Of a stretch of 64,000 nucleotides of DNA, positions 403 through 44,398 are shown piece by piece. The notes below the pieces were generated by a model that worked only from the letters and a program-made list of their open reading frames with translations, ran no database searches and had not been told where the DNA came from. The DNA comes from Tubulanus polymorphus (lineage: Eukaryota > Nemertea > Palaeonemertea > Tubulaniformes > Tubulanidae), in contig NC_134028.1 in the NCBI RefSeq assembly GCF_964204645.1, positions 4,190,501 to 4,254,500 of the forward strand, in the 5' to 3' direction. A program made the position numbers and the translations under genes. Every line of letters begins with the position of its first letter. Position 1 is the stretch's first letter.

Positions 403-508
403 CTGATATACCGAACAGCTAGACCTAAATCTGCTATGCAACAAGTACCATTTTTCTTAACGAGAATATTTTTTGATTTGATGTCTCGATGGGCAATCGC
501 TGGTTTAC
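403..508 (-). CDS. BMPR1: BMPR1 exon: catalytic loop
   Basis: It encodes [20 protein letters not shown] and then [10 protein letters not shown]. It holds the catalytic aspartate (HRD), the metal-binding asparagine (KSKN) and the DLG form of the DFG motif used by type I receptors. It ends in phase 2 with GTAAGA. The activation segment and C-lobe exons must lie left of position 1, because no matching sequence is seen in 1-402. Confidence 0.96.
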
Positions 509-3500
509 CTGCAACGGTACGTTATCAAAACTAAAGGTTACTTCATCGTTTTTAAGCAAAAAAAGGCGATAAAAACTGAAAATGCTTTATCATCTTAAGA
601 ACATCAGTCGCGCGACCATAATATGTCAAAACTACGTATCTAAACTATAATTGAGTAATTTTGTTGGCACTCGGTGTGTCGGTAATTATCGAGCTGTTAC
701 ATCTAGTGTCATGTTTATATAGATATTGACAATGATATGATAATTATTTCATGCGATTATAATATACACGATGATTCTATAGATGAGCTGACAGTGATGT
801 TCACTTTATCGGGTTGATTTTTATCGCCAGGTTAGGCGCTGATCGTTATTACAAAATGAATGTCAAACCAGGCACCGTTCGCGGATGGAGTAAACGATAC
901 TTTAGTTGTCACTTTTTTTAACGGAAATACGGTTAACCCATTAATTCCGGAATCACCGTACACGAACGTCTAATCTATAGTCAGCGAAGACAGAACAGTC
1001 GGGAAAATAAAATGATAAGTTTTCGATAAAGCGCTTTCTCGTATCCCGACTACATCGCATTAAGAAAACAATTCATATGTAAATACAAAAAGCTCGGAAT
1101 TCCGTTCTCCTAAAGATAAAGAGACATCTACACGAACCTCTAGTGCCGTATATTTCCGTGTGTAAATGTGAAAGTCCGCAGACGGCTGAATGAGCCAAAC
1201 GTAACATATCCGACGTGCTGAGCACGTTCGCTTTTAGATAATCGTGCAACGATCCGTGCTCGTGGTAATCTGTGATCAGAAATAACTGCGTCCACGATCC
1301 AGTTCCTTTAATATCTGCTGCTATAAAACCTGAAAATAAGATTCGAAAACATACTAATTTTTTGATGATACATGTTTATACTATATCAGACGGAGCTACC
1401 GGTGCACGGGAAAGAAACTGCGGCAAGTGAGCGTATAGGATTCTGTACACGAGCGAAATCAATCGCGATCGATCAAAGTTCAAATAAATCAAGTTCCGTT
1501 CAGGTTTTGATCTGTCAATTAGTTCGAACAAACACGTTTCACAGACCTCCCAGAACATTTATACACCGGGAGAGATCATACGTAGCGCATGAAATGAGAC
1601 TGCGCTGAATGATGAGGGGGTAGCTCCACAACAAACGAGAGACGAACAGAGCGAAATCGACCTCACATCGATTAGAGAACCACCTGTATCTCGGGAAGCA
1701 GACGGCTCTTGAATGAATCTTATAATATCCTCCTCGTAACTTATGCTTCACATCGGGTGAAAATACGTTTTTTTTACTACACTACTACATCAGATGAAGA
1801 AAACATTCTTATAATGAAATGTGCCGACCACATACCGGTATGTAACTGCAATACACTGTATACAGATTGCACGTCACATGTATCAGAAATCTGTTGTTTT
1901 TTTTAAATATTTTTAATAGATAGTTCTAATATTTCTACGAATTCTTATTCGTATAGATAGAATGTTGTCTGCATTTGCTAAATAAGAGAAAGAAAGAGGA
2001 ATTAAATTGTTTATAAACCAGGAAACTAACTATCAGTAACGTAAAACTAATGAAAACGGTTGTTTTCTCTACTTCTGTTCTCGGTTCTCAATTACTACTG
2101 GTAAATAACCTATAATTCTGGTTCACAACAACAACATCCTTATGGTAATCATTTTTGACATCTTCGTAATAGATTTCTACCTCTAGGGAGTAAGGAAATA
2201 TCTCCTGAAATCTACTATTAGTACCCGACCCCAACCCTCATTCAACTTAATTACTTTTTTCAATCGGTAATATTTACAAACAGTTTCCGGGAATCGTTCC
2301 TGCACAAATCAATTCTCCAAATGAGACTGAAAATCTATCCCGAAGTAATTATCCCTTCGCAACAATCTTCTGACAAAAACACCTGGAAACCGCCGGTACA
2401 AAGTTTATTTACTAAAATGGCAGGGTGGCTATTTGAACGGGTAAAAACCTGTTTCGTTTCAACCCGGGACACCGTACTGCGCTAACAATTACTAAACGGT
2501 TCAAGAACTATTTACAAATGGTACTGAACGCAGGAATACCTGAGAGTTAACAGCACGTATCAGAGATTGTACAAATTTCCTGTATTTACCTACGTCTGCC
2601 GGTGTTCATTTCTAACCGATATTTACCTCACATTCTCCTAATTTGAACGCAATTTTCGCTGGTAGAAAACACCAGGGGGACACCTAACCCGTAACGACTA
2701 GTTTACGGAGGAGATGTGTCAATCAACGCGCGGGATTTCACAAATTTATGGCAAATAAAGTAAATGAATTTATCGAGGCATCAGATTACAGGTTGAGAAG
2801 AATGCTTTTGTTGGATGTTGAATTTTCGTAACAAAATCTCGATTCTTATAGTACTCGTATAATACAGTACACTAGGCAATGATACATATCGGATTGACAG
2901 CGGCGTAATCCAATGGTTTCACAACTGATGCACTTCGTCGTGACGATATTGATACCGGAGTTCTACGCAATTAAGTCTCGCGCGATCGAGAAACGCGCGA
3001 GCCGTCCGGGCAAATATTGCGTAAAAACTGTACGGATTACTAAACGATGGCGACGAAATGACAACCGGATTAACATTCTTAAAGCGTCGAAGACTACGGG
3101 GGAAATTCCAGCGGTTTAGAGTAATTTAGTCGATCATCTTGTAATTACGTCGTCAATTAATCTCGCGCCGCAATCATTTTCATTAATAGAACATAGAACC
3201 TTCGTATATATATGACCTGGGTTGGGGGGGACAAGTCATTTGATTGGAATATACAACGAAGCAAGTTCAGGATGGTTTTATTGAGGAAGGAATCACTGTC
3301 TGAATGAGAAGACAATACGAGGAGCCAGCTGACAGCGGGAAGTTTTAGACAGATTGCCTTTACCACCTTCCTACATGTAGTCTGTTTATTTTTCTATAAT
3401 GTACTGTACCGTGTCAGACAGCTGCACTGTTCAATCAGTTACGCTTCACTGAATTAATTACTCAGGAACAACACATAGTTTTTCATAGCCACGAAATTTA

Positions 3501-44300: not shown

Positions 44301-44398
44301 ATGAATTAATGATCAACTATATTTTCTTTCAGAGCGCAGTCAGTCAGGCCGGCACGAAATCTATAGCGAAAGTCATCGAAACGTTGGAATCTTTGTAA
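30905..44398 (+). CDS. WAPL: WAPL cohesin release factor (16 coding exons)
   Basis: WAPL works with PDS5 to open the cohesin ring and unload it from chromatin, which controls sister cohesion and chromatin loop size in the nucleus. Coding exons: 30905-32392, 32874-32927, 35788-36012, 37109-37245, 37437-37548, 37955-38197, 39220-39331, 39537-39640, 39765-39841, 39930-40075, 40384-40499, 41988-42140, 42515-42782, 43154-43242, 43653-43748, 44333-44398. All borders are AG/GT, phases agree, and the sum is 3486 nt or 1161 aa (human WAPL is about 1190). The start ATG at 30905 gives [11 protein letters not shown], like the family N-terminus. An upstream in-frame GTG at 30890 is not used. Residues from about 590 on form the HEAT-like WAPL domain with [46 protein letters not shown] and [20 protein letters not shown]. 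Confidence 0.96.
34795..35726. mobile_element. composite TIR element in WAPL intron 2
   Basis: The outer arms are inverted: GACTGGAGACAACTAGTTGC at the left (from 34797) and GCAACTAGTTGTCTCCAATC at the right (from 35705). Inside, GACCTGAGCGC and CAACTAGTTG-like pieces recur in both orientations, and a second TIR element (34858-35373) is nested. No long reading frame resembles a transposase. Confidence 0.65.
34858..35373. mobile_element. inner TIR element nested in 34795-35726
   Basis: Left end CACTCAGGTCGCCC and right end GGGCGACCTGAGTG are exact inverted repeats. Further GGGCGACCTGAGCGC ends at about 35225-35250 suggest yet another copy within. A 30 bp block starting CATTTTGAACAGATCACATG is present twice, at about 35137 and 35178. 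Confidence 0.65.
36013..37108 (+). other. WAPL intron 3
   Basis: 1.1 kb intron containing a tandem duplication at 36521-36665. Otherwise there is no recognised feature. Confidence 0.7.
36521..36665. repeat. tandem duplication, two copies of about 72 bp
   Basis: Copies 36521-36592 and 36593-36665 both read ATAATTCTGGGCAT(A/G)GCTCT and then TTTAGTGGTATTAATCGCGT with few differences. The high identity points to a recent event. Confidence 0.85.
37109..44398 (+). CDS. WAPL: WAPL exons 4-16: conserved C-terminal WAPL domain
   Basis: Thirteen short exons (66-268 bp) encode about 572 residues, the helical repeat domain shared by all WAPL proteins. Landmarks in order are [143 protein letters not shown] and [10 protein letters not shown]. 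The large exon at 42515 contains an acidic insert ([13 protein letters not shown]) before the last conserved block. The chain ends [11 protein letters not shown] and TAA. Confidence 0.95.
37282..37391. mobile_element. MITE filling WAPL intron 4
   Basis: The ends are inverted over 18 bp: GGGTCCGGTTCCACAGTT at the left and the complement of GGGTCCAGTTCCACAGTT at the right. The inside is also self-complementary (GAGTTAACTC blocks). The intron is only 191 bp, so the element makes up more than half of it. A related element lies at 56655-56782. Confidence 0.75.
38301..38708. mobile_element. TIR element in WAPL intron 6 with a 28 bp palindrome
   Basis: The left end AGGCGAATTTATCACGTCAA and the right end TTGACAAGATAAATTCGCCT are inverted repeats. 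The middle holds a perfect 28 bp palindrome at 38430-38457 around CACCTCCGGAGGTG, and many TTTGAT/ATCAAA pieces. The element is 408 bp and non-coding. Confidence 0.7.
40500..41987 (+). other. WAPL intron 11 with a GC-richer stretch
   Basis: Around 40780-41290 the intron is richer in G, C and CpG than its surroundings and shows no repeat. It could be a regulatory element. Short open frames (minus 41058-40777, plus 41343-41549) match nothing I know. The latter begins with a hydrophobic, signal-like stretch but is probably chance. Confidence 0.35.
42189..42411. mobile_element. hAT-like remnant in WAPL intron 12
   Basis: The right end GATCCGCCCCTG is the usual hAT short-element end. The left end CAGGGCAAGACATGAGGG is a decayed match. 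Non-coding, about 220 bp, with no clear target duplication. Confidence 0.4.
42899..43120. mobile_element. MITE in WAPL intron 13 with CCCGGCCG repeats
   Basis: The arms are inverted: the left one contains TTGATACCTTGTTTCTCCGC and the right one GCGGAGAAACAAGGTATCAT. Between them GACCCGGCCG occurs three times, an unusually GC-rich core for this AT-rich locus. Non-coding, 222 bp. Confidence 0.75.
43276..43577. mobile_element. GGGTGGCCAC-family element in WAPL intron 14
   Basis: It starts CCGGGTGGCTGCTTA and ends AAGTGGCCACCACG, which are inverted-repeat ends. The body is rich in GTCAGGGAA/GTCGGGGAATT words. Related pieces occur at about 34575-34743, 39701, 40555-40620, 44095-44153 and 46196-46300, so this is an abundant family around WAPL. 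The superfamily is not identified. Confidence 0.6.
43829..43883. repeat. short inverted repeat
   Basis: Perfect 16 bp arms, CATCTTCAGGAATACA at 43829-43844 and its complement at 43868-43883, with a 23 bp spacer, in WAPL intron 15. The CTTCAG/CTGAAGATGACT wording resembles the loop of the fold-back element at 4744. Confidence 0.7.

What the first reader, a model, noticed from the sequence alone, without database searches (positions are those of the whole stretch)
403..44398. BMPR1 and WAPL are linked here as in human
The window has a BMP type I receptor and WAPL about 16 kb apart. From memory, human 10q23.2 carries WAPL, OPN4, LDB3 and BMPR1A within a short interval. Linkage shared between an invertebrate and vertebrates suggests a bilaterian microsynteny block, perhaps held by BMPR1 enhancers in or beyond the bystander gene WAPL. 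ATP5MF is not part of the human block as I recall it.
Basis: partly seen in the sequence, partly recalled or inferred. Interest (0 to 1): 0.65.

Follow-up and report, generated by a model that had tools for sequence, protein, structure and literature searches.

The report
Ancient BMPR1–WAPL linkage on one chromosome
In this insect-like genome the BMP receptor gene and the cohesin-release gene WAPL sit about 17 kb apart, facing away from each other as they do in vertebrates; the most likely reason is that an ancestral animal chromosome has stayed largely together, and nothing here shows that BMP enhancers hold the pair in place.

Summary
A BMP type I receptor (thickveins/BMPR1, minus strand) and the single WAPL gene (plus strand, 30905–44398) lie about 16.7 kb apart, head to head, with ATP5MF between them. 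Bird and human gene lists confirm the vertebrate linkage BMPR1A–LDB3–OPN4–WAPL. No other eukaryote genome was available, so the proposed multi-phylum test could not be run. Instead I asked whether other genes of the human 10q23.2 block lie on the same contig (C4, 10.2% of the assembly). LDB3/Zasp, GLUD1, PAPSS2 and PTEN all do, but megabases away. RPP30, EXOC6, SUFU (C2) and VPS26 (C11) do not. Neighbours within 60 kb also map, from memory, to 10q or its paralogon (SGPL1, METAP1, noc/elB = ZNF503/703, ERLIN, MGMT). So the primary signal is a retained ancestral chromosome, within which the BMPR1–WAPL pair is probably, not certainly, a retained micro-linkage: chance given the same contig is about 0.3%, but some tens of such pairs are expected by chance genome-wide. 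The idea that BMPR1 enhancers in WAPL hold the pair is untested. noc/elB, flanking a 45-kb stretch where I recognised no protein gene, is at least as good an anchor. Interest is modest.

The parts
402..14286 (-). thickveins/BMPR1 (BMP type I receptor), exons for ectodomain, TM, GS box and kinase; continues left of the window to about -1 kb
27969..29139 (+). ATP5MF (F1F0-ATP synthase subunit f), two recognised exons
   Evidence: PF10206 in both exons
30905..44398 (+). WAPL (wings apart-like), single copy in the genome
44399..64000 (+). Stretch downstream of WAPL without a recognised protein-coding gene, leading toward noc/elB (exon at 89.9-91.4 kb, outside the window); holds two U5 snRNA matches and two tRNA-Val-like sequences

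Best explanation
BMPR1 and WAPL were on the same chromosome, and probably close together and divergently oriented, in the bilaterian ancestor. This genome (probably a hymenopteran, inferred from composition and protein style only) has kept much of that ancestral linkage group on contig C4. Most formerly neighbouring genes have been shuffled along the contig, but BMPR1 and WAPL have not been separated, with ATP5MF inserted between them. The persistence needs no special mechanism beyond slow rearrangement within a conserved linkage group. Shown: the linkage, the orientation here, and C4 enrichment for genes of human 10q23.2. Inferred: descent of the close linkage from the bilaterian ancestor. 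Not shown: any regulatory reason.
For: BMPR1 and WAPL identities. Vertebrate linkage: turkey chr8 list ...GLUD1, ADIRF, SNCG, MMRN2, BMPR1A, LDB3, OPN4, WAPL within 0.95 Mb (PMC7460020); human 10q list holding BMPR1A, LDB3, OPN4, WAPAL, GLUD1, PAPSS2, PTEN (PMC10093755); LDB3/PDLIM5 and BMPR1A/BMPR1B as a 2R paralogon (PMC3528684). On contig C4 (10.2% of the assembly): Zasp/LDB3, GLUD1, PAPSS, PTEN and LAMTOR3 of human 4q23. Four of the eight human-10q genes tested that gave a match are on C4 (binomial P 0.005), five of nine with LAMTOR3 (P 0.001). Close neighbours SGPL1, METAP1, noc/elB (partly by eye), ERLIN and MGMT also fall, from memory, in human 10q or 4q23/8p11.23. Head-to-head orientation matches human (from memory). 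Non-dipteran holometabolous insects keep significant large-scale linkage with chordates (PMC4244043).
Against: Within C4 the other block members are megabases from BMPR1/WAPL, so local order is mostly scrambled, and a secondary approach of two genes on one contig has about 0.3% probability per pair; genome-wide, roughly 25-60 such pairs are expected by chance (rough model). One study reports that vertebrates lost 84% and ecdysozoans 50% of novel bilaterian microsyntenic blocks (PMC8851819), so retention in both is uncommon. In Drosophila, tkv (2L) and wapl (X) are unlinked (from memory). RPP30, EXOC6 and SUFU of 10q lie on C2 and VPS26 on C11. The families tested were chosen as I went, not fixed beforehand.
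Confidence: 0.62

Rival explanations
1. Shared chromosome, chance neighbours: both genes descend from the same ancestral linkage group, but their nearness here arose anew by shuffling within the chromosome.
For: Other block members are spread over C4 from 1.96 Mb to 26.8 Mb, showing extensive internal shuffling; some tens of chance pairs per genome are expected under that model.
Against: For this particular pair the chance is about 0.3%, and about 0.08% with the same orientation.
Confidence: 0.27
2. Regulatory block anchored on BMPR1: enhancers of the receptor lie in or beyond WAPL and prevent separation.
For: Known class of cases (genomic regulatory blocks with bystander genes; PMC5728398). 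A developmental signalling gene next to housekeeping genes fits the anatomy.
Against: No conserved non-coding element could be tested with one genome. The published bilaterian-conserved regulatory segments report does not mention BMPR1 or WAPL (PMC10735318). The block is broken in Drosophila (from memory).
Confidence: 0.06
3. Regulatory block anchored on noc/elB (ZNF503/703): the gene-poor stretch between WAPL and noc/elB is its enhancer landscape, and WAPL is held as the near edge of that block.
For: noc/elB coding exon at 89.9-91.4 kb on the minus strand with about 45 kb lacking recognised protein genes between it and the WAPL stop. Znf503/703 enhancers are among the few conserved across bilaterians including diverse protostomes (PMC10735318). 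ERLIN follows noc here, and ERLIN2 is close to ZNF703 in all tetrapods analysed (PMC5144077).
Against: In human, ZNF503 is about 11 Mb from WAPL (from memory), so this cannot explain the vertebrate BMPR1A-WAPL linkage. No enhancer was identified here.
Confidence: 0.05

Closest known systems
Vertebrate BMPR1A-LDB3-OPN4-WAPL block (human 10q23.2, turkey chr8)
   Same: BMPR1 and WAPL linked; divergent orientation (human strands from memory)
   Different: Here ATP5MF lies between them; Zasp/LDB3 and GLUD1 are on the same contig but 16-22 Mb away; OPN4 not tested
Bilaterian ancestral linkage groups (macrosynteny between insects/myriapods and chordates)
   Same: Several genes of one human region share one contig, with local order scrambled
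   Different: Shown here for a handful of genes only, without a genome-wide test
Genomic regulatory blocks with bystander genes
   Same: Developmental gene near housekeeping genes
   Different: No conserved non-coding element or regulatory contact shown
ZNF703-ERLIN2 conserved neighbourhood of tetrapods
   Same: noc/elB and ERLIN lie about 15 kb apart in the flank of this window
   Different: Other members of that neighbourhood (PROSC/PLPBP) were not seen within the stretch read

Membership tests
Conserved bilaterian microsynteny pair | Both genes are orthologues of the vertebrate pair | tested here: met
   BMPR1A/B-type L45 loop; single WAPL gene
Conserved bilaterian microsynteny pair | Pair close in the genome with few genes between | tested here: met
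   about 16.7 kb, ATP5MF between
Conserved bilaterian microsynteny pair | Pair close in several independent phyla, above chance | not testable with these tools
   No other eukaryote genomes held; literature searches for the pair with synteny terms gave nothing
Retained ancestral linkage group | Other genes of the same vertebrate segment on the same contig above chance | tested here: met
   LDB3, GLUD1, PAPSS2 and PTEN on C4; 4 of 8 matched 10q genes, P 0.005; families chosen sequentially, not preregistered
Genomic regulatory block | Conserved non-coding elements of the target gene in or beyond the bystander | not testable with these tools
   Needs related genomes
Genomic regulatory block | Developmental target gene with a gene-poor neighbourhood | tested here: inconclusive
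   A 45-kb stretch without recognised protein genes lies on the noc/elB side of WAPL, not between BMPR1 and WAPL

The most novel reading that the evidence does not exclude
BMPR1-WAPL is a previously unlisted divergent gene pair kept together since the bilaterian ancestor by BMPR1 regulatory elements located in WAPL.
Probability: 0.06. Interest if true: 0.65.

Novelty: new member of a known kind. Interest (0 to 1): 0.34.

Why it matters
If close linkage is ancestral, it adds one pair to the catalogue of gene neighbours kept since the bilaterian ancestor and points to a testable regulatory question for a BMP receptor. The surer result is that one contig of this genome still carries a recognisable piece of the ancestral chromosome that became human 10q23 and 4q22–23.

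Tried and rejected
Searched the literature for WAPL/WAPAL with BMPR1A and synteny, thickveins with wapl, and BMPR1 with wapl and microsynteny: nothing. Submitting whole-frame translations to Pfam failed because of stops, and two calls failed on coordinates or stops. PF00719 (PPA1) gave no match, so that gene is uninformative. The ELFV-dehydrogenase match on C3 was read as a leucine-dehydrogenase-like protein, not GDH, and the C1 and C5 PTEN_C2 matches as auxilin/GAK-like and TPTE-like phosphatases by eye, so they were not counted. The idea that the full vertebrate block is intact here was rejected because Zasp lies 16–22 Mb away.

Full report
What is there. The window is C4:4190501–4254500 of a 267.8-Mb, 77-contig assembly. 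GC is 39.6%; the protein style suggests a hymenopteran, which is my inference only. On the minus strand, exons from 14.29 kb down to the left edge and about 1 kb beyond encode a BMP type I receptor: ectodomain (13951–14286, 4976–5122), transmembrane segment (4517–4648), GS box (4046–4111) and kinase. The joined kinase exons match BMPR1B best in the PDB (E 1.5e-112) ahead of TGFBR1 and ACVR1, and the joined ectodomain matches only BMPR1B. The L45 loop [23 protein letters not shown] is of the BMPR1A/B type, while the other two type I receptors of the genome carry ACVR1-like and TGFBR1-like loops and lie on C1. So the gene is the thickveins/BMPR1 orthologue. On the plus strand, WAPL runs from ATG 30905 to a stop at about 44398, matches human WAPL 4K6J, and is the only place in the genome with PF07814 matches. 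ATP5MF lies between them. The gap from the outermost located BMPR1 coding exon to the WAPL ATG is about 16.7 kb and the two genes are head to head.

The vertebrate side. A turkey list gives, in order on chromosome 8 within 0.95 Mb, FAM35A, GLUD1, ADIRF, SNCG, MMRN2, BMPR1A, LDB3, OPN4, WAPL (PMC7460020). A human 10q deletion cluster holds BMPR1A, LDB3, OPN4, WAPAL, GLUD1, PAPSS2, PTEN and RPP30 (PMC10093755). LDB3/PDLIM5 and BMPR1A/BMPR1B are reported as a paralogon of the vertebrate genome duplications (PMC3528684), so the BMPR1–LDB3 linkage predates them. In human, WAPL is on the minus and BMPR1A on the plus strand, that is, also divergent (from memory).

A test that could be run. I therefore asked whether C4, 10.2% of the assembly, carries other genes of the same human region. 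Zasp/LDB3 (two matches, both on C4 at 20.8 and 26.8 Mb), GLUD1 (C4 21.1 Mb), PAPSS (C4 1.96 Mb) and PTEN (C4 8.3 Mb) do. EXOC6, RPP30 and SUFU are on C2, VPS26 on C11, and PPA1 gave no match. Thus four of the eight 10q genes that gave a match are on C4 (P 0.005), and the four nearest to BMPR1A in human all are. LAMTOR3 of human 4q23, near BMPR1B, is on C4 too. The families were chosen in the course of the work, so these P values are a guide, not a preregistered test.

The neighbours point the same way. Reading 60 kb on each side gives, to the left, METAP1 (human 4q23), SGPL1 (10q22.1), an SCP2-domain gene, an SH2-domain SOCS-like gene and a muscle myosin heavy chain. To the right, after about 45 kb without recognised protein genes, come noc/elB, the ZNF503/703 orthologue by eye (zinc finger; human 10q22.2 and 8p11.23), ERLIN (10q24.31 and 8p11.23), an MGMT-type gene (10q26.3) and a CD225-domain gene. 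Human cytobands here are from memory. Allowing a gene to map to any paralogous region makes such matches easier to find, so I use this as support only.

Interpretation. The best-supported statement is that C4 preserves part of an ancestral chromosome that became human 10q23 and its 4q22–23 counterpart, with heavy internal shuffling. Given that, two specific genes on C4 fall within one gene of each other with probability about 0.3%, or about 0.08% with a fixed orientation, against 0.03% for two genes drawn from the whole genome. Across a genome, roughly 25–60 human-neighbour pairs would still become neighbours here by such shuffling (rough model with an assumed 12,000 genes). One survey finds that vertebrates lost 84% and ecdysozoans 50% of novel bilaterian blocks (PMC8851819). 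I put retained close linkage at about 0.6 to 0.65 and within-chromosome coincidence at about a quarter to 0.3. Non-dipteran insects are known to keep large-scale linkage with chordates while Drosophila does not (PMC4244043), which fits both the signal here and the separation of tkv and wapl in Drosophila (from memory).

The regulatory-block idea is not supported by anything I could see. Conserved non-coding elements need related genomes. If there is such a block here, noc/elB is at least as good an anchor: it borders the stretch without recognised protein genes next to WAPL, Znf503/703 enhancers are among the few reported as conserved across bilaterians including protostomes (PMC10735318), and ERLIN follows it here as ERLIN2 is close to ZNF703 in tetrapods (PMC5144077). 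But that would not explain BMPR1–WAPL linkage in vertebrates.

Verdict. Observation confirmed; interpretation partly supported: shared ancestry of the linkage is likely, mainly as part of a retained ancestral chromosome, and the enhancer explanation is untested. Interest is modest.

Noticed in passing
window 46540-46659 (-) and 53339-53458 (-): Two U5 snRNA matches of nearly equal score (88.5 and 88.4 bits) 6.7 kb apart downstream of WAPL.
   Followed up: no
window 50899-50971 (+) and 58862-58936 (-): Two tRNA-Val-like sequences with different anticodons (AAC, TAC); the same translated motif (PWCSGYHICLTRRRSRVRNPMEP) also appears at C4:20.79 Mb in L008, so they may be repeats derived from a tRNA.
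   Followed up: partly
window 13083-13837: A 755-bp minisatellite with a 20/39-bp unit (AAACAACAGTGGACTCCATC) about 0.1 kb from the ORF holding the BMPR1 ectodomain exon.
   Followed up: partly
window 28045-28140 (+): Rfam Sphinx_1 lncRNA match overlapping the first recognised ATP5MF exon; probably because the Drosophila sphinx gene derives from an ATP synthase F gene (from memory).
   Followed up: partly
84-107 kb right of window start (L017, L019): noc/elB (ZNF503/703) and ERLIN lie about 15 kb apart, as ZNF703 and ERLIN2 are close in tetrapods; possibly an older micro-linkage than BMPR1-WAPL.
   Followed up: partly
G000:C2:27377066 and 27567271-27570324: RPP30 and EXOC6, about 2 Mb apart in human 10q23 (from memory), are about 190 kb apart on C2, suggesting a second ancestral segment within human 10q.
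   Followed up: no
G000:C4:20789165 and 21144636: One Zasp match and GLUD1 are about 355 kb apart on C4; LDB3 and GLUD1 are also close in vertebrates.
   Followed up: no
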